From positions 1,959,001 through 2,023,000 of the forward strand of contig NC_088299.1 in assembly GCF_032854445.1 (NCBI RefSeq): a stretch of 64,000 nucleotides of DNA, written 5' to 3'. Below the pieces are notes generated by a model. That model ran no database searches. It was not told where the DNA came from and saw only the letters and a program-made list of their open reading frames with translations. Source of the DNA: Liolophura sinensis (taxonomy: Eukaryota > Mollusca > Polyplacophora > Chitonida > Chitonidae). Position 1 is the stretch's first letter; each line of letters starts with the position of its first letter. A program made the translations under genes and the position numbers. Positions 28,449 to 63,789 of the stretch are shown piece by piece.

Positions 28449-29660
28449 CATAATGGGGAGGGCCATTACGCAGCAGCAGTTTGAATTGGGCCATTATGCA
28501 GCAGCGGTTTGGGTGGGCCATTATGCAGCAGCAGGTTGGGGTGGGCCATTATGCAGCAGCAGTTTTGGTTGGGCCATTATGCAGTAGCAGGGTGGGTAGT
28601 GTGCCATTATGCAGCAGCAGGGTGGGTAGTGTGCCATTATGCAGCAGCAGGTTGAGTTGGGCCATTATTCAGCAGCAGGTTGGTGTGGGCCATTATGCAG
28701 CAGCAGGTTGGTGTGGGCCATTATGCAGCAGCAGGTTGGGGTGGGCCATTATGCAGCAGCAGGTTGAGTTGGGCCATTATGCAGCAGCAGGTTGAGTTGG
28801 GCCATTATTCAGCAGCAGGTTGGGGTGGGCCATTATGCAGCAGCGGGTTGGGTTGGGCAATTATGCAGCAGCAGGTTGGGACGGGCCATTATGCAGCAGC
28901 AGGTTGTGGTGGGCCATTATGCAGCAGCAGGTTGGGTTGGGCCATTATGCAGCAGCAGGTTGGGTTGGGCCATTATGCAGCACCAGGTTGAGTTGGGCCA
29001 TTATGCAGCAGCAGGTTGGGACGGGCCATTATGCAGCAGCAGGTTGAGTTGGGCCATTATGCAGCAGCAGGTTGAGTTGGGCCATTATTCAGCAACAGGT
29101 TGGGGTGGGCCATTATGCAGCAGCAGGTTGGGTTGGGCCATTGTGCAGCAGCAGGTTGGGACGGGCCATTATGCAGGAGCAGGTTGGGTTGGGCCATTAT
29201 GCAGCAGCAGGTTGGTGTGGGCCATTATGCAGCAGCAGGTTGGGGTGGGCCATTATGCAGCAGCAGGTTGGGGTGGGCCATTATGCAGCAGCAGGTTGGG
29301 GTGGGCCATTATTCAGCAGCAGGTTGGGGTGGACCATTATGCAGCAGCAGGTTGGGGTGGGCCATTATGCAGCAGCAGGTTGGGTTGGGCCATTATTCAG
29401 AAACAGGTTGGGGTGGGCCATTATGCAGCAGCAGGTTGGGGTGGGCCATTATGCAGCAGCAGGTTGGGGTGGGCCCTTATGCAGGAGCAGGTTGGGTTGG
29501 GCCATTATGCAGAAGCAGGTTGGGTTGGGCCATTATGTAGCAGCAGGTTGGGGTGGGCCATTATGCAGCAGCAGGTTGGGGTGGGCCATTATGCAGCAGC
29601 AGGTTGGGGTGGGCCATTATGTAGCAGCAGGTTGGGGTGGGCCATTATGCAGCAGAACTT
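28449..29660 (+). repeat. 28-bp G-rich minisatellite, about 43 units
   Basis: The unit is GGGCCATTATGCAGCAGCAG followed by GTTGGGGT, 28 bp. Variants are TTGAGTTG, TTGGGTTG, TTGGTGTG and TTGGGACG, plus single changes such as ATTCAG or GCAGGAGC. Because 28 is 1 modulo 3 and the unit has no stop in any forward frame, all three frames stay open and encode the same 28-residue cycle (including WAIMQQQVG, HYAAAGW and GPLCSSRLG) out of register. The minus strand has TAA in one frame. Each unit has four short G runs (GGTTGGGGTGGG), a two-tetrad quadruplex pattern. There is no splice or promoter evidence for a gene. Confidence 0.95.
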
Positions 29661-50889: not shown

Positions 50890-51545
50890 ATGGACTGGCC
50901 GGGTGTGAACAGCAGTATGACAGCAGAATGTCAGAGGTAATACTTGGTCAGCAGTATGATTGACTGAACAGTAACTATGACTGCAGAATGTCACAGGTAA
51001 TACTTCAACAGCAGTATGGTTGACTGAACAGTACTATGATTGCAGAATGTCACAGGTAATACTTCAACAGCAGTATGGTTGACTGAACAGTACTATGACT
51101 GCAGAATGTCACAGGTAATACTTCAACAGCAGTATGGTTGACTGAACAGTACTATGACTGCAGAATGTCAGAGGTAATACTTCAACAGCAGTATGGTTGA
51201 CTGAACAGTACTATGACTGCAGAATGTCACAGGTAATACTTCAACAGCAGTATGGTTGACTGAACAGTACTATGACTGCAGGATGTCACAGGTAAGACTT
51301 CAACAGCAGTATGGTTGACTGAACAGTACTATGACTGCAGGATGTCACAGGTAAGACTTCAACAGCAGTATGGTTGACTGAACAGTAGCCTACTATGACT
51401 GCAGCAATGTCACAGGTAAGGCTTCAACAGCAGTATGGTTGACTGAACAGTACTATGACTGCAGAATGTCACAGGTAATAATCACCACAATCTGATTGAC
51501 TTAACAGCACTATGATTGCACAATGTCACAGGTAATGCGTCACCA
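50890..51545. repeat. 59-bp tandem repeat, about 11 units
   Basis: The unit is GAACAGTACTATGACTGCAG, AATGTCACAGGTAATACTTC, AACAGCAGTATGGTTGACT. Central units are over 95 per cent identical; the first and last are diverged, and one unit has a GCC insertion. Each unit contains CACAG|GTAATA, a donor-like string. No gene is visible around it. Confidence 0.93.
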
Positions 51546-52120
51546 GCAATCTGATTTATTGATCCCCCTAATTCATAATAAAGCCTTAACCTTCCTCAAT
51601 GGTTGTTTCTCAATGTGCTTATAGGCCTATTTATGGTGACCGACACTTCTATATGTTCTATTCTTTTTTGAACAGTAATTTATATCGTATAGTATAATAT
51701 AACATAATATTACTTTTATAAAAAAAAATATTTCTTGTATTACTCACCAATGAGTCATTCAGTCAAACATGTCAAACATGCCCGTCAAAAGTTTGTGAAA
51801 TCCCTTCTGTGTGGTGTTGTATTTCTTTTATTTCTTTCTTTCCATGCACGAACTAGTTGATTCCGGATATAGGTTGGTATCTGGGTACATTCCTTGTCAC
51901 ACACATGTACGTCCACAAAAATTAAGCACTGAGGCATTGCTTCCATGTTACCTGACAACCTTTAATCAATGAAGTCAGCGGAAGCTTGAAATGGACACGT
52001 TTCATTCATACAAAGTCTTCATTCATACAAGAATATTTTCCATGGAAGATTACGATGGTTACGCTTCACTATTTGAAACATAGGACTAAACTTCGTATCA
52101 GGAATGATAACCTCCTACTC

Positions 52121-54390: not shown

Positions 54391-54654
54391 AAAAAATTCT
54401 GAAAAAATTTGTTCGCACCAAGGAGATCAAACTAATCCAATATTAACTCCCCAAATCCCATGACTCCCAGTCCAGTCACAACACCAATCATTACAATTTC
54501 TCATAATAACAATACAATCTGAATTTTCTGATAACATTGCCAACAAGAGTATCTTCACATTGGTCTAGGAAATGTTGTCTTAATTCGATTATTTCATTGA
54601 GAGGCCTACATTAAGTAGCAAACATAACTTATTTAGAGCATAGGTTCGTTTGAT

Positions 54655-54902
54655 TTATTTATGATTTTGATTGGTATTGTATGCCGTACTCAAGAATATT
54701 TCACTTACACGACGGCGGCCAGTATAATGGTGGCAGGAAATCGGGCAGAGTTCTGGGCAAACCCACGACCATCCACGGGTTCCTGGAAGACCTTCGCACG
54801 CAGGGCTGGAGAGGAAGTCAGCATGAGCTGGACGTACTATATATTGATGAGAAGCTCCTGGGCCTTCGCGCTGGGTATAACCACCTCGTCTACGGAGGCC
54901 CC
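54655..54902 (-). mobile_element. SINE, diverged near-complete copy
   Basis: Inverted copy from TTATGATTTTGATTGGTATT to CCACCTCGTCTACGGAGGCC. Deletions occur in the B-box region. Confidence 0.85.
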
Positions 54903-55416: not shown

Positions 55417-58400
55417 ATGGATCTTTTTGACGATCTCCCAGAGCCATGTAAGTTGAGATCAGGAGGTTTTATTTTTATAAATATATGGCTGGCCATCACC
55501 TGATAACGAAAAATGCACACTGCGTGGTTCTCAGTTTGTAACGTGACTCCTCTTTCATTTTCAGCATATGGGAAGGATGTTGGAGGTAAGGCTGAGCCAA
55601 ATAAGCTCGGTGCAGCCAAGAATATGACACTTACTAACGCAGAAGATGTGGATAATACGTGCAAAAGTGATGGAAAGCGAAAATTGTCCGAAGACGACAC
55701 TCAAAACAAGAAGAAAAGAGTGGAACACGGTATGCAGTTGTGTTCAAATTTCCGCCAGTGTAGACACAAATGTGATACCGGTGCATGTGTATTTTGTGTT
55801 TGATCATTATACTCGACGGACGGAAACTAAATTAGAAAACCTGAGTCAGACAACATTTTGATGCGATGTTTACATGTAACTGGTTAAAGTAAACTGTGAC
55901 TGAGCGTCGGCGATTGAATAAGTTGCATAGAATAGGTACGGTATATGTATTACAGCAAAATATTTATACCGTATTCTTTTCTCAGTGCCTGTAAATTTAA
56001 TTCCTGTGTATGACCTATCAACTCAACAGCTCATGCAATAAACACTATAAAGAAACAGGATACACATTGACTTCATTCTCCAAGGATAAAGTAAATGGGT
56101 TGTTAAGAAAAAAAAAGAATAACTTGTGGTAGACGAAATCAAAATCAGATTCCCCCCACGTTTTTATGTGTACACCCCAATACAGTTAGAGGAATAGAAT
56201 GGCTTGACTTTGATCAGTTTGGGATAGGCTGGAAGTGTCTTATATGCATTCATCCTGACTTGTTACGATGCTTCATTGGTAAGGATGTATAATACCGGTA
56301 CCTACATAGAATTATAATTAGCGCTGAACCCAATTTCATGATTTCAATCTATATAAACTAACTTTTATGAAATGTTTTGCTTGTAAACCAATCAAAAGAA
56401 AGTATATCATCATGAAGTATAAATAATTTTAATTAGTTATGCATCATATCAGAAGAAGAAATCATTTGTCGCTGGGATTAAGCCTGTCTTTATTCTAATT
56501 ATGAGAAATATTATTTATGCATAAATTGAATCAGATCGCAGTGTTATTGAAGGGCATATTTTTCTTCCAGCGACATATAAACTGCGAGGATTTGTTGCAG
56601 AGCATCAGGGAGAGAGAGATGAAATGCAAGATGCTCATGTTCTTATAGATGACTGGACTTCAAGATTTATCTCCCTTGACCCATCTATGTGAGTCTACCT
56701 TGCAGATAAATGTTTAAGCATGGTATTTATTTGATTGTTGTTTTTCACAATATTCAGAATATTTCGCTTGTACGACAGTGGCCAGCATTATGGTGAAAGG
56801 AAACTCAGGACCACTCTTAGGTAGCTAACAGACCTCCTATGTATGACTTTGTTAACCTTGTTCATATTTTTGCAATTATGGGGGCTTCCGTGACGGAGGC
56901 GGTTAGCACACCAGCACAGTGCTATGAACCTGGAGCCCCCAACCAATGCGGTTGCTATGAGTTCAAGTTCAGCTCATGTTGGCTTCCTCACGGGCTGTAT
57001 GTGGGAAGATCTATTAGCAACCTGCAGATCGTCGTGGGTTTCCTCAGGCTCTGCTCAGTTTCCTCCCGCCAGCATTAACACCAATCAAATACATAAAAAA
57101 TAAATTTTGCGGTTATGTCATAGCTGCTCTGAGCTAATTCTAAGGTGAAATAGGCTTTAAATAAGATGTTTATGTAATACGGCACTGAAGTTGATAACAC
57201 TTAGCCAATTTCATATGTGATTTAAATGTTTATTTTTGAGTTAAATTAGGAATATATAAACGAGTCTTATATTAAAGCAACCATACTAAAACTGGAACTG
57301 CTGTGGCCATAAAGTGGTTATTATATCAACGTTTTACATGCATCCTTTCACAAAATGGCTTTGCGGGATTGGCCCCTGCTACTTTTCGCTGTTTATGGGT
57401 CCTTGGTGACAATAACTGCCATTGTACAGTCTAACAATCCTTATGGACCATTTACTTTCCAGTTCTACAAATATCATGTGAAAAAGCTAAACAGTAACCA
57501 TGGTAACTTGTAAAAGGTGGGTGGGTTACCCCAGGAATTCCATTTTTGTGCACCCATAAAACTGACTGCCATCATAAAAGTGAAAAGTTTCTGACAATGG
57601 CATTAAACAACAAGCAAACAAATAAATAAATATTTCATGGTAGCCATATTTTAAGGTGCAGAAAATGGAAAAAGATCGATTTCATTTTCTGAAATAGGCC
57701 TGTTGTGAATTACCTCCCTTGTTAAACAGTGACGACGTAACACAAGATTAGTTTTTAAGGTGTCAAACTACGAGAAGCAAGACTGTGTCTATTAAAGCAT
57801 GCATTATGTAGTGACACATGTTTTCTAGGCAACTGAACAGATAAAAAAAATGTGTTGTACTTACAAAATTAAAATCGGTCTTAAAGCTGTATGACTTCAA
57901 CCAGCTTGTGCCACTTTAACTCCGAAACTTTGCCATTAGCCATTTTCTGCTAAAAAATGCATGTTTTTAACAGTAGGGGACAGTGGGGCCCTGTTCACCA
58001 GTCACACAGTCACTTTTGAATGTAGTTATGGTGGTGTTGTTGTAGATTACAGTTATCGCTGTACGCTGTCATGGATGGGCACGGTGGGAAGCGGGCATCA
58101 AGGTTTGCATCAGAGAGTTTACCCCTCAATTTGCGGGAAAAATTCCCCAAGGGTAATGATAAGATGAAAACCAGCTAGTCTAGTAATTTGAGATGTAGTA
58201 TAAACAATATGTGTTGAATACTTGACTGATCAAATGAATACATGTCACTCACTATTAGTTTACATGACTGTTTATGGAGAAATAAATAGAAAAATTTACA
58301 TGTAGGAGCTGCAAATCCTGAGGCTTGTGTGTGCATATGGAATATTCTGTATGGGTACATAAACTATGTACAAATTTCCTGACAACTAATGTTTGTTTAG

Positions 58401-61400
58401 CAGAACAATAAGAGTTTATTGGTATTAAAAAATAATTTATGCAATGAATACGTGTAATTGCCCATTTTGATAGTTAATTATGAAATATGAAAAGATCATG
58501 GGTAAAATGATATTTTATTTCAAGATTTGACCAATTGAAAACATTTCAGAAATGTATTTTGTCTAGTTAAAATTAGAAAAGTCGCTTAGTCTCCAAGTTG
58601 ACCTGTTTACCATGTTTCTCTTACAGGAGACACATCTCGAGTTATGTCTGACATCAAAAGATGTTTCATTGAGGCATACAAAAAGACAGATGAAGATTTC
58701 CTGAAGGAGGCTGCAAAAAAGTGAGTGATCTTGATAAAACTCCAATTCTACCCAAAATAAATAAATAAAAAAAAAAAAAGAAGTACATGTTTGAGAAGTG
58801 GATTGATGTAAAGGTTTTCAGTTCCTGTTCTTTTTCCATGAGAATGTTTAATATTTGGGAAAAAATAGTTAAAATATATGTTATATTTATATGTAAATGT
58901 ACTTTCCTTTGGAGAAAGTATGACATTAAACCCCAAGCACTCACTCACTCGCTCCTTTGGATATGAAGACAAACTGTATTAGAGTGTTAAACTGTATTAT
59001 TATATTGTGGCCTAGCTTTTAAACTTGAACCAGCCCATGCAGTAGAAACTGTGGTGGGCATATTCTGTCAGTACCTTTGTAATTTAATTATCTGTGTCCC
59101 ATATTTGACAGTAAACCAGCCTGGAAGGATGGGACCACAGCTATTTCTGCTGTATGTGTTAACGATGCTGTATATGTGGCTAATCTAGGGGACAGCAAGG
59201 TGAGTCTGTGTGTAATCTCTCTGTTTGTCATTGGTTCCATCATGGGAGGCAGATGTTCATCATGAGCATTATACGAACTTGGTTTTGTATTTTTCTGAAT
59301 ATATTTTTGATGCCTTTTGCAAATGAGGAGATCAGCACCATCATGTACAAACTGCTTTGCTGGCTTAATGGTGAGAGAGTCTACCTTTAAGTTGGGCTGA
59401 TACCAAAGAAAAAAAATTTTGCTTGTTACTGCCTCCCTTGATGCTCAGCACTGAGAGGTTAGAAAACTATGCCATCTTTTGCTGATATTGTGACATTTGA
59501 TTTCAGGCGGTGTTGTGTCGTTATAATGAGGAGGAGAAGAGGTGTGTGGGGATTCCCCTGAGCCAGGACCACTCTCCCTCTGCATATGAGGAGAGACTTA
59601 GGATACAGAAGGCAGGGGGACATGTCAAGTAGGTTGTCAGTCAGATCCACACTGGTACTCACTAGTGTTACTCACTGTCCACACAACTACCACGTCCTAG
59701 ACAGGGGGACATGTCAAGTAGGTTGTCAGTCAGATCCACACTGGTACCCATTAGTGTTACTCACTATCCACACACCCACCACATTCTGTGGAGGGGGACA
59801 CATCAAGTAGGTTGTCAGTCAGATCCACACTGGTACTCACTAGTGTTACTCACTGTCCACACAACTACCACGTCCTAGACAGGGGGACATGTCAAGTAGG
59901 TTGTCAGTCAGATCCACACTGGTACCCATTAGTGTTACTCACTATCCACACACCCACCACATTCTGTGGAGGGGGACACATCAAGTAGGTTGTCAGTCAG
60001 ATCCACACTGGTACTCACTAGTGTTACTCACTGTCCACACAACTACCACGTCCTAGACAGGGGGACATGTCAAGTAGGTTGTCAGCCAGATCCACACTGG
60101 TACCCATTAGTGTTACTCACTATCCACACACCCACCACATTCTGTGGAGGGGGACACATCAAGTAGGTTGTCAGTCAGATCCACACTGGTACTCACTAGT
60201 GTTACTCACTGTCCACACACCCACCACATCCAGTGGAGGAGGACATATCTAGTAGGTTTTCAGTCAGATCCACACTGCTGCTCACTTGTGTTGTTTTCTG
60301 TCCCCACACCCACCGCATCCTAGACAGAGTAGGTTGTCAGTCCCAGCCACACTGCTACTCATTGTCTTTATTTACTGTTGAATGTTTTAGGCTAGCTCAC
60401 TTCGCAGCCTCTGGAACTGGAAGAAAATCTTCCAAAAGCTCTGGCTAAGTTTGTCAATAAGTTACCAAAGGTTATTTGATTTACTATTAGTTCCTTTACC
60501 CGTAAGACTGATGCCTTTGGAGAAGTCAATAATGCATGACTCTGGAAGATAACAACATCAGTCAGTCAGTCTAGCCTGCAAATGTAGTCATGTGATCTGT
60601 TTGTCAATAAATGTGTTTGTCTAGAAATGGTCGTGTGATGGGTGTGCTCGAGGTGTCACGGTCAATAGGAGACGGCCAGTACAAAACCTTTGGGGTCACA
60701 TGTTTACCTGACGTCAAGAAATGTCAGCTGAAAGACAAGGATAGGTGAGGTTACAGCCAACAGTATTGTCAGTACACGAGGCTTGCTCCTGTTCTGGGAA
60801 GTAGTCCGTCAGCTCTGGTGTAAAGATTGGCTCACACAACAATTTTGAACTGATTGTTCATCAGACTAGATGTATACGACTGCATCATTGTGTGTGGGGG
60901 AAGAAAAATCAAATGTGTGAAGAAACATATGACAAATCATCTAACAAGCTCTACCACTGAGTTGGATGAAGGAGGCAAAATGCTGTTAGCTAATCCAAAA
61001 GCGTTAAACTATGAGTCATACGATGATTGCACTGGTGCCTGGTAAAGTCTGATACTTGACAAGCAGACACACGGTTCGACTGATAAGATGTTGTCTGTTT
61101 ATTTATTTTTTTATTTGATTGGTGTTTTATGCTGTACTCAAGAATATTTCACTTATACGACGGCGGTCAGCATTATGGTGGGTGGAAACCGGGCAGAGCC
61201 CGGGGGAAACCCACAACCATCCGCAGGTTGATGACAGACCTTCCCACGTAAGGCCGGAGAGGAGATGTTGTCTGCAGGGGAAAGCAATCTAAATGTAATG
61301 GAAGTGTTGCCGTCCATAGAAATCGGATAGAAGTATTAGAACAAAATTGTTGTGTGTGAACCTACTTTAAGCTGTTGCGAAATACTGCGAATTCCTGATT

Positions 61401-63789
61401 TTAATGGGTATTAATACATTACAGCTTAAATTTCGTTGCCCGCCATGCAGCCCATTGTGCTTTCTGTATGTGACTTGTGTGAAATGATTTGCCGTGCCAA
61501 CAAAACTGGGCCTGCATTGAAGTTTTCATACACTGCATCATCGTATTGAAATGTGGTCAGCAAATATGAGATATTCATTGTGAAAAAGACGATTCATTGT
61601 GTTGTCTTAATGTAGTAGTGATATACGAATGCCGTGGAAATTTCTTTAAAAAAAAAATAATAAAACATGACCTTTTTTTTCAGTATGCATGCACAGACTT
61701 GAACTTTTGAAATCTGTGGTTGCTGAAATCACGGAGGCATATACGGTCTGTATATACCTCCATACTGAAATGAAATGTTCATTGTGAAAAACATCATTCA
61801 TTTCAGAAGTTTGTTGTTAAGATTGACTTTTCTTTTGTATTTTTTTCTGAGGTTTTTACTCATTGGCTGTGATGGATTGTGGAAAAGTTTCTCCATACAG
61901 GAAAGCATTGAGTTTATTGAGCAGCAGTTAAATGTAAGCTCTAAATGGTTCATAAGTCCTGGGCCCAGGTGTTCAAAAGTGCATCAGCAATTAAATGTGA
62001 TATTAACTTTAGTCTAGACTAAAGTGCCATTATTTTTTTTTAGTGTACCAAGGCTGGGTTTAAAGGATTAATGTCCAGATTGGTTATTTATTCAAGCCTG
62101 TGTCTCTGTGTGAACCAGTGAGTGAGCTCCTAACAAATTGTTAACTGTGTACAACAACGCAATTACAACTGCGGCAATGCTAGCAGTATCTGACCGGCCA
62201 TCCAGGACGATTAAATCCGAAAACAATCCAAAACCAATGGTGTTGTTTGAGTTAATCAAGAATTAATGACTGGGGTTGAAATACTGGTTGTTGATTAAAA
62301 GTACTCATCAAAGGTGCGAAAACAAGTGAAACCTCTTTCAATACTGCTCAGGGTAGGTGAGAAAGCAATCTCACATAGTCATGATCCATCCCCAATTGCT
62401 TTTTTCTCTCATCCAGATTACCAGGATTAGCAACACCGCTGAAAACAAAAGAGGATTAAATCCACCTTTCATAAGACCTGTTTGACGTGTTTGCGTAATT
62501 CCGGCTATAGTATAACTAGGAAAAATAAATAGTTGTAAGAATTGTTTTTTTCAGTATTGCCTTGATTATATGCACAAAACTTAATTCTCGCGAACTGTTG
62601 GCTCAAATTGATACGGCTGTACATTTGCTTCTGTGTAGCTAGAATCTATCTCGAAAGTGACATCGTTTTAATACAAATTCCCAGTTTATACAGGCCCGCT
62701 AGACTTGGGTTGGTCATCTATGACGTCACCCGCGGAACTTTTCCGGGCGGCTGACTGGAGATCGGCTGGAGAAGTAAATCTATTGTTTTTTGGTGTATTT
62801 AAAGGCAGAATTACGTTTCTCAGAGCCCTTCTGGTAACATACTGTTAAACAGGTTATAATCTTTATACTTAGGGCAAGTAGCTAAATCTGGACAATAATC
62901 CGTTAAGGCTTCAGCCTGGCTTAACTTTTAGTACACTTTTGAACAACTGACCGCTGGACCTTAACGTCTTCTACAAGAATGAGATGTCTGTTAGTGATAA
63001 AACAGCTGTTTAATATAACTATTTCTTCTGTGTAACTCAGTTTTTTAATCTATGATTTTGCTTGGTATTGTCACAATATTATTTACATTCATTTATTTTA
63101 TTTTTTTATTAAACTTCTGAAAGCCTTCTCTTGTAATAGGTATGTCTGTATCTCACATTGGTATGGTCTATTGATATTTGACCCAACCACCTTTGTCTCA
63201 ACCAGCTTTTATTTTATTTTGTTGTGTGCTTTGTTCTTTTTAAGCAAAGTGTCCTGTCCCTACCGATTAACTATTATATAAATTGTTCAGGGCAAAGACT
63301 TAACTGTATGATACCAGAACGCTAACTGTTTAGACAATAGTCAGTGTAATATTGGTCAATTTCTCAATGTCATTGGGGTCATTTGAGTTATATTTTTGGA
63401 CAGGCCTCTCCTCAAACCCTTAAGCAGTTTTCATCAAACTGGTACCACAGTGGCATCGAGTAAAGGTGGTTGGACGTATCCCTACATTATCTTGTACTGC
63501 CATTGTGTAAGCGAAAAATTAGTGTGGCGTTACTATACCATCTCTACTATCATTACTATCTTATGGACAAGTGGCATTAAGTACATTCCGTTGTATGATC
63601 CAAAGCTTTGTATCCAGTATCCAAAATATATTTGTTTTTTCTTTTGTGCAGAAATGTGGTGATACAGCAGGAAGGGAAACTGATGCAAAGTTTCAGGCAG
63701 CCTGCAATAAACTTGTCTCTGAAGCTGTTTTAAGACTCAGTGCTGACAATGTCACTGTTATTTTAGTGCGAATCCAGAAGACAAGGTGA
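55417..63789 (+). CDS. ilkap: ILKAP-type PP2C serine/threonine phosphatase, complete gene
   Basis: ILKAP is a metal-dependent PP2C phosphatase that binds integrin-linked kinase and dampens its GSK3-beta signalling. Exons: 55417-55447, 55565-55729, 56571-56688, 58046-58152, 58627-58720, 59112-59199, 59507-59628, 60625-60744, 61852-61933, 63652-63789. Total 1065 nt, 354 residues; all sites are GT..AG and phases match. The start MDLFDDLPEP parallels human MDLFGDLPEP. Residues 47-63 hold basic clusters (KRK, KKKR) that could be a nuclear signal. PP2C motifs: EHQGERDEMQDAH (about 76-88), YAVMDGHGG with metal-ligand Asp115, ANLGDSK (195-201), SRSIGDGQYK (253-262), CDGLW with Asp289, and SADNVT with Asp341. 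It is shorter than human ILKAP (392), mainly through a shorter N-terminal linker. Exon 4 has the weakest acceptor (GTTGTTGTAG|A); an AG six bases downstream (GATTACAG) would break the phase. Intron 7 begins inside an 89-bp satellite. Confidence 0.96.
56724..56836 (-). mobile_element. SINE fragment in ilkap intron 3
   Basis: TATTTATTTGATTGTTGTTT...GTACGACAGTGGCCAGCATT, ATGGTG, then AGACCTCC. Tail and body are present, but the head is missing. Confidence 0.8.
56879..57110 (+). mobile_element. SINE in ilkap intron 3, tail deleted in part
   Basis: The head GGGGGCTTCCGTGACGGAGG and the body are present. After TTTCCTCCCGCCAGCATTAA it jumps to CACCAATCAAATACATAAAA, losing the TTCTTGAGTACGGCG segment. 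Confidence 0.85.
57340..57634 (+). mobile_element. Diverged SINE related to 49829-50133
   Basis: Shares GGGTCCTTGGTGACAATAACTG-like middle sequence (GGGCCTTGGTGACGACAACT in the other copy), a CATAAAACTGACTGCCATCA body and an (AAAT)n tail. The head is not recognisable. Confidence 0.5.
57867..57947 (+). repeat. Dispersed repeat, partner of 25470-25550
   Basis: TAAAATCGGTCTTAAAGCTG...CTTCAACCAGCTTGTGCCAC, TTTAACTCCGAAACTTTGCC. It lies about 100 bases upstream of ilkap exon 4. Confidence 0.6.
58905..58955 (-). repeat. Inverted copy of the GAGTGAGTG...GGTTTAACGTC repeat
   Basis: GGAGAAAGTATGACATTAAA, CCCCAAGCACTCACTCACTC reads, inverted, as the start of the same repeat as 48953-49030. It lies in ilkap intron 5. 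Confidence 0.55.
59612..60345 (+). repeat. 89-bp tandem array containing the ilkap exon 7 donor
   Basis: Donor-like GT positions recur at 59629 (authentic), 59718, 59807, 59896, 59985, 60074, 60163 and 60252, exactly 89 bases apart, then at 60329 after a shortened unit. Two subtypes alternate: A has CAACTACCACGTCCTAGACA, B has CACCCACCACATTCTGTGGA, making a 178-bp higher-order unit. Each unit repeats GGGGGACAxxTCAAGTAGGT, that is, the last about 14 bases of exon 7 plus its 5' splice site. Confidence 0.95.
61093..61263 (-). mobile_element. 5'-truncated SINE in ilkap intron 8
   Basis: Inverted tail and body, TTATTTGATTGGTGTTTTAT to AAGGCCGGAGAGGAG; the head is absent. The sequence GATGTTGTCTG occurs on both sides (about 61087 and 61264), which fits a target duplication. 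Confidence 0.9.
61733..61761. other. 12-bp hairpin in ilkap intron 8
   Basis: GGAGGCATATAC and GTATATACCTCC pair with one mismatch around a 5-base loop. It lies about 90 bases upstream of exon 9. Function unknown. Confidence 0.5.
62721..62728. promoter_or_regulatory. Intronic CRE consensus in a GC-rich patch
   Basis: TGACGTCA followed by CCCGCGGAAC and CCGGGCGGCTG stands out from AT-rich ilkap intron 9. It could mark an internal promoter or enhancer, but no exon start is visible nearby. Confidence 0.3.

What the first reader, a model, noticed from the sequence alone, without database searches (positions are those of the whole stretch)
59612..60345. ilkap 5' splice site multiplied in an exact 89-bp tandem array
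The array unit includes the final bases of exon 7 and its donor, so nine donor-like sites lie in series after the coding exon, eight of them exactly 89 bp apart. The authentic first one is the only site that keeps the PP2C frame: later units contain in-frame stops. Either the first donor always wins by position, or alternative splicing adds poison sequence. The array may also tune intron 7 splicing and expand or contract between individuals.
Basis: seen in the sequence. Interest (0 to 1): 0.75.

Follow-up and report, generated by a model that had tools for sequence, protein, structure and literature searches.

The report
Repeated splice junction in chiton ILKAP
In a chiton's ILKAP gene, the end of one exon and its splice signal have been copied about nine times in a row into the next intron, and the same kind of array occurs in many other genes of this animal; it resembles the amphioxus 'mirage' repeats and probably persists as a tolerated by-product rather than a switch.

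Summary
The array starts 16 bp inside the coding exon (59613) and runs to about 60345. It carries nine donor-like sites: eight at exact 89-bp spacing, seven of them the identical 9-mer CAA|GTAGGT, and a ninth 77 bp further on. The units form a 178-bp A/B higher-order repeat, fading at the 3' end. The gene is ILKAP, a PP2C phosphatase, in a chiton assembly (Liolophura; HiFi). Only the first donor yields a full-length protein; every later donor gives the same stop directly after exon 7.

This is not peculiar to ILKAP. Tandem donor arrays are enriched about fourfold over a same-composition motif in this genome. Of 30 other arrays fetched, at least 10 begin inside a database-verified exon (RPTOR twice, BTAF1 twice, SUFU, prominin, Fe-hydrogenase-like, GH31, antistasin, ankyrin). 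The mirror case, an acceptor array, occurs in a PP2C paralogue. The closest known kind is the amphioxus 'mirage'; human IFI6 is a related case.

Best explanation: minisatellites that by chance straddle a splice junction, kept because the exon-side copy stays functional. I found no clear selection on the extra donors. Splicing outcome and polymorphism remain untested.

The parts
59613..60345 (+). Splice-junction-straddling minisatellite: 8 units of 89 bp plus a degenerate ninth; 178-bp A/B higher-order repeat
59613..59628 (+). Last 16 coding bases of exon 7 (G CA GGG GGA CAT GTC AA, residues AGGHVK); first part of repeat unit 1
59629..59634 (+). Authentic 5' splice site CAA|GTAGGT
   Evidence: only donor giving an open 354-aa PP2C frame; U1 pairing -5.3 kcal/mol, within the range of the gene's other donors
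59718..60168 (+). Six further identical donors CAA|GTAGGT at 59718, 59807, 59896, 59985, 60074, 60163
60252..60257 (+). Eighth donor-like site CTA|GTAGGT in the diverged unit 8
60329..60334 (+). Ninth donor-like site AGA|GTAGGT in the remnant, 77 bp after the eighth
59507..59628 (+). ILKAP exon 7 (counted here from the ATG exon)
59629..60624 (+). Intron 7, 996 bp, about 72% array
60625..60744 (+). ILKAP exon 8 (acceptor tttgtctag|AAATGG)
55417..63789 (+). ILKAP coding gene model, 10 exons, 354 aa, PP2C domain residues 74-343

Best explanation
It is a 'mirage'-type minisatellite. An 89-bp segment covering the last 16 bp of exon 7, its donor and 73 bp of intron was tandemly duplicated (inferred), diverged into A and B units, and re-amplified as 178-bp dimers (shown by 100% identical dimers). 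The array could spread into the intron because the exon-side copy always remains a complete exon end plus donor, so the protein is preserved as long as splicing uses the upstream-most donor (inferred). Exon definition (exon 7 is 122 nt; later donors would make it 211 to about 820 nt) and purine-rich exon sequence, rather than donor strength, most likely decide the choice (inferred). Any use of later donors yields a truncated message that nonsense-mediated decay should remove (inferred). The extra donors are a tolerated by-product. Many genes of this chiton carry such arrays (shown for a sample).
For: Array begins inside the coding exon, and the exon tail is repeated 16/16. Only donor 1 gives full-length PP2C; all eight others stop at VK*. 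Tandem AGGTRAGT triplets number 3146 against 826 for a same-composition motif, 828 for that motif reversed and 1185 for the donor motif reversed; CCAGGTAAGT triplets 35 against 5. Exon ends at array starts verified by databases: SUFU, prominin, Fe_hyd_lg_C, ankyrin, DUF3535/BTAF1, RPTOR twice, Mot1/BTAF1, GH31 and antistasin, with 12-59 exon bases repeated. That is 10 of 30 fetched arrays, against a rough 2% expected (P about 2e-10). Acceptor-side counterpart with the true exon as the last unit. Later copies show no clear selection on donors. In an unbiased set of PP2C exons, junction arrays are no commoner than general array cover. Amphioxus mirages do not disturb splicing by RT-PCR (PMC3087553; PMC3902484).
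Against: No RNA evidence from this animal. Local context does not single out donor 1: copies 1 and 2 are identical from -16 to about +30, U1 pairing is equal, and predicted accessibility is similar. Human IFI6 shows that downstream repeat donors can be used. The slight excess of donor conservation across arrays (p 0.034, biased) would fit weak selection to keep donors.
Confidence: 0.72

Rival explanations
1. Poison-donor rheostat: a fraction of transcripts uses later donors, retains the built-in TAG and is degraded, so array length or U1/SR-protein levels set the ILKAP dose.
For: Six further donors are identical to the real one over 9 nt and flanks; every later choice truncates at residue 242; IFI6 uses downstream repeat donors.
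Against: No RNA data. Donors are not conserved beyond the rest of the unit in ILKAP (P 0.17). The same architecture lies in many unrelated genes. Amphioxus mirages reportedly do not yield aberrant mRNA.
Confidence: 0.13
2. Extra donors help: a cluster of U1 sites strengthens recognition of a moderate donor or suppresses premature intronic polyadenylation, so they are selectively kept.
For: The authentic donor is moderate (score 2.7, against 1.0 to 8.3 for the gene's others); GT is kept in all nine copies; donor 9-mers slightly better conserved across arrays.
Against: Conservation difference small, confounded by selecting arrays for the donor motif, absent for GT alone. Acceptor-side arrays exist too, which this idea does not predict.
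Confidence: 0.08
3. Active nucleation: the splice junction itself (R-loop or another transcription-coupled break) provokes tandem duplication, so junctions are preferred birthplaces of minisatellites in this genome.
For: Donor-bearing matches are about four times commoner than control-motif matches; in C1:0-5.5 Mb I count about 18 distinct donor arrays against about 3 control arrays in those listings.
Against: Real donors make the motif commoner in genes anyway. In 23 PP2C exon loci only one array crosses an exon edge, no more than the few-percent array cover of those loci. The ILKAP window has 5.9% array cover and 1 of 9 donors hit.
Confidence: 0.06
4. Assembly artefact: copies invented by the assembler.
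For: Perfectly identical dimers.
Against: HiFi reads averaging 8.3 kb at 14x span the 0.73-kb array; units carry private variants (U6 C, U7 hybrid, U8).
Confidence: 0.01

Closest known systems
Amphioxus 'mirages' (Adh3, globins BflGb6/BflGb9; similar arrays in PGBD5, TnC): minisatellite-like tandem duplications of exon/intron boundaries
   Same: Unit spans exon edge, splice site and intron; both 5' and 3' boundaries affected; concerted turnover with diverged boundary units; many units keep AG/GT (PMC3087553 section 16; PMC3902484)
   Different: Here in a mollusc (chiton) and recurrent over many genes and contigs; splicing outcome and length polymorphism tested in amphioxus, not here
Human IFI6 (G1P3) exon 2 minisatellite of splice donors (Turri et al. 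1995, cited in PMC4526556)
   Same: A tandem repeat at an exon end supplies multiple donors
   Different: IFI6 uses two downstream units as donors and makes three mRNAs; in ILKAP all later donors are truncating. IFI6's much shorter unit is from my own knowledge
Internal tandem repeats at exon-intron boundaries of human segmental-duplication genes (PMC2812944)
   Same: Minisatellite expansion at exon-intron boundaries changes gene structure
   Different: There the repeats can create new introns and alternative transcripts; here an existing intron is extended
Intron gain by tandem genomic duplication (PMC4974935, listed, abstract only)
   Same: Tandem duplication across a splice-like signal
   Different: No new intron here; the intron pre-existed (inferred) and only its 5' end is multiplied

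Membership tests
Mirage-type minisatellite | Tandem repeat unit spans an exon/intron boundary | tested here: met
   16 exon bases plus donor plus 73 intron bases per unit
Mirage-type minisatellite | Repeat copies retain AG/GT-like splice signals | tested here: met
   GT in all nine copies; seven identical donor 9-mers
Mirage-type minisatellite | Concerted turnover, with array-edge units diverged | tested here: met
   U2=U4, U3=U5; U8 and U9 diverged
Mirage-type minisatellite | Length polymorphism between alleles | not testable with these tools
   one assembly haplotype only; single locus
Mirage-type minisatellite | Normal mRNA splicing despite the array | not testable with these tools
   no transcript data available
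IFI6-type donor minisatellite | Downstream repeat donors used in stable mRNAs | not testable with these tools
   no transcript data; all would be truncating in ILKAP
ILKAP (PP2C) | PP2C domain with ILKAP-like exons | tested here: met
   Pfam PP2C 2.9e-59; exons about 44-71% identical to human ILKAP recalled from memory, including N-terminal MDLF.DLPEP

The most novel reading that the evidence does not exclude
Chiton genomes systematically host hundreds of minisatellites born from functional splice junctions, and splicing in these animals reliably picks the exon-most copy among many identical donors (or acceptors), making them natural tandem tests of exon-definition rules; some arrays may have become length-dependent dose regulators.
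Probability: 0.3. Interest if true: 0.75.

Novelty: new member of a known kind. Interest (0 to 1): 0.55.

Why it matters
Identical donors in series, only the first of which makes protein, offer a natural experiment on how the spliceosome chooses among equal 5' splice sites, a question usually addressed with artificial minigenes. If the class is as widespread in chitons as this sample suggests, it shows that mirages are not a lancelet peculiarity, gives a source of raw material for intron lengthening and new splice forms, and warns that gene predictors may misplace exon ends in such genomes.

Tried and rejected
Nova-type YCAY clustering in the array (43 sites): not above dinucleotide shuffles per unit (p 0.27 and 0.55). 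RNA accessibility as the reason for choosing donor 1: predicted values similar for all copies. Stronger U1 pairing of donor 1: equal to copies 2-8. Copies of the unit elsewhere in the genome: none found. Other ILKAP introns with arrays: none in TRF. Phase of the first donor within the array as a test of nucleation: dropped, because any array with one donor per unit has it in the first unit. L083 (PTHB1 exon) looked like a hit but repeats only 5 exon bases and was not counted. A first gene model had three wrong exon ends and was corrected. The original mirage paper is not held and the original IFI6 paper was not read; details come from citing papers. No other eukaryote genome could be searched, so orthologues in other chitons were not compared.

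Full report
Observation. TRF finds 59613-60327 with period 89 (8.0 copies) and a better-matching 178-bp period with 96% matches. Reading the units in register gives A B A B A B A' C plus a remnant: U2 equals U4 and U3 equals U5 in all 89 positions, U6 differs from U2 in one, U7 is an A/B hybrid, U8 is diverged, and the remnant holds a ninth donor-like site 77 bp after the eighth. Donors 1-7 are the identical 9-mer CAAGTAGGT.

Gene context. A tblastn with human ILKAP (recalled from memory) lays out exons in order on the + strand from 55417 to 63774. Joined at GT/AG sites they give a 354-aa open frame with a PP2C domain (E 2.9e-59, residues 74-343) and matches to PP2C chains in the PDB, including PPM1A. 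Exon 7 is 59507-59628, intron 7 is 59629-60624, exon 8 starts at 60625. The array begins 16 bp inside exon 7. These bases encode the AGG.V segment that aligned PP2C chains share (RI.KAGG.V), so the coding sequence is the likely source and the array the derivative.

Consequence of donor choice. Only donor 59629 yields the full protein. Donors 2-9 all give the same stop after residue 242, because exon 7 ends in codon phase 2 and the retained intron reads AAG TAG: the stop is part of the donor itself. Two later donors (59896, 60163) are multiples of 3 away but still stop.

What could mark donor 1? Not sequence strength: U1 duplex energy is -5.3 kcal/mol for copies 1-8. Not local context: copies 1 and 2 agree from -16 to about +30. 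Not predicted accessibility. What differs is the upstream exon: short and purine-rich (59%, six purine-motif hits in 106 bases) against a 41-44% purine array (three in 717). Exon definition is therefore my inferred reason; no RNA evidence was available.

Organism. The genome's statistics (632 scaffolds, longest 96,433,062, N50 37,343,639, and a 19,479,325-bp scaffold that carries this window) equal those of the published Liolophura japonica assembly (PMC11068029), since corrected to L. sinensis (PMC12441733). It is HiFi-based with reads averaging 8.3 kb at 14x and heterozygosity 1.24%, so a 0.73-kb array lies within single reads.

A genome-wide class. Patterns of three AGGTRAGT at 59-89-bp spacing occur 3146 times, against 1185 for the reversed motif and 826 and 828 for a permuted motif and its reverse. 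At 90-120 bp the figures are 2438 against 1074. CCAGGTAAGT triplets number 35 against 5 and lie on eight contigs. Matches overlap, so these are not array counts. I fetched 18 arrays from the first 5.5 Mb of C1 and 12 from several contigs. Peptides ending at the first donor matched SUFU (1.8e-9), Fe_hyd_lg_C (1.8e-12), prominin (6e-9), ankyrin repeats (2e-9) and DUF3535 of BTAF1 (6.6e-6), GH31 (3.5e-13) and antistasin (3.9e-8), raptor residues 291-330 (1.8e-15) and 1089-1123 (7e-6), and the Mot1/BTAF1-type helicase (4e-11). In these, 12-59 exon bases recur in later units, while eight other ILKAP donors share 1-3. So at least 10 of the 30 arrays are anchored in true exon ends. I put chance at about 2% from roughly 200,000 introns and 60-bp tails in 609 Mb (my estimate; P about 2e-10). 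Several more (L082, L084, L086, L089) look like exons but lack a firm database match.

The mirror image. Among 23 PP2C exon loci taken without regard to repeats, L027 carries a 78-bp array of 7.7 copies, most with TTGTTTCTCCAG|GGTTTCCCCAGTCAGT; here the true exon is the last unit. Arrays thus grow into the intron from either end, with the exon-side copy left in charge.

Selection. Within ILKAP, no variable site among U1-U7 falls in the donor 9-mer, but this happens by chance in 17% of placements. Over 12 arrays the donor 9-mer is 95.1% and the rest 92.5% identical to consensus in later copies (p 0.034), GT alone p 0.20. Eleven of the twelve were found by searching for donors, which inflates this. 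I read it as near neutral.

Known kinds. Amphioxus 'mirages' match in anatomy, in affecting both boundaries, and in turnover; there the arrays vary between haplotypes and do not disturb splicing (PMC3087553; PMC3902484). Human IFI6 is the contrasting case, where downstream repeat donors are used (PMC4526556). Boundary repeats in human duplicated genes can create introns (PMC2812944). In the library searched I found no report of mirages in molluscs, which is not proof of absence.

Verdict. Observation confirmed; the array is a new member of a known kind, in a new phylum as far as I could find, and one of many in this genome. The mechanism I favour is a tolerated junction-straddling minisatellite with exon-most donor choice. 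Shown: anatomy, frame consequence, recurrence. Inferred: origin from the exon, donor choice, neutrality of the extra donors.

Noticed in passing
L027 (G000:C10:28764878-28768114), bases 991-1589: Acceptor-straddling array in a PP2C paralogue: about eight copies of polypyrimidine tract, CAG and exon start; the true exon is the last copy.
   Followed up: partly
L067 and L068 (G000:C1:2.08 and 2.13 Mb); L071 and L072 (C1:4.19 and 4.20 Mb): Two separate donor-straddling arrays in what appears to be the same gene, in RPTOR and again in BTAF1.
   Followed up: partly
window 28454-29655: 28-bp repeat, about 43 copies, consensus TGGGGTGGGCCATTATGCAGCAGCAGGT; the consensus has no stop when read over an 84-nt (three-unit) frame and contains CAG|GT.
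   Followed up: no
window 50906-51548: 59-bp array with CACAG|GTAATA donor-like sites in its units, but no evident exon at its 5' edge.
   Followed up: partly
L063 (G000:C1:1308000-1312400), from 1467: 81-bp (27-codon) array in which the antistasin-like exon tail of about 59 bp is repeated about 19 times with its donor.
   Followed up: partly
window 61100-61265, 54650-54830, 56730-57090: Mollusc-type SINE-like copies in and near ILKAP introns; identified by eye only.
   Followed up: no
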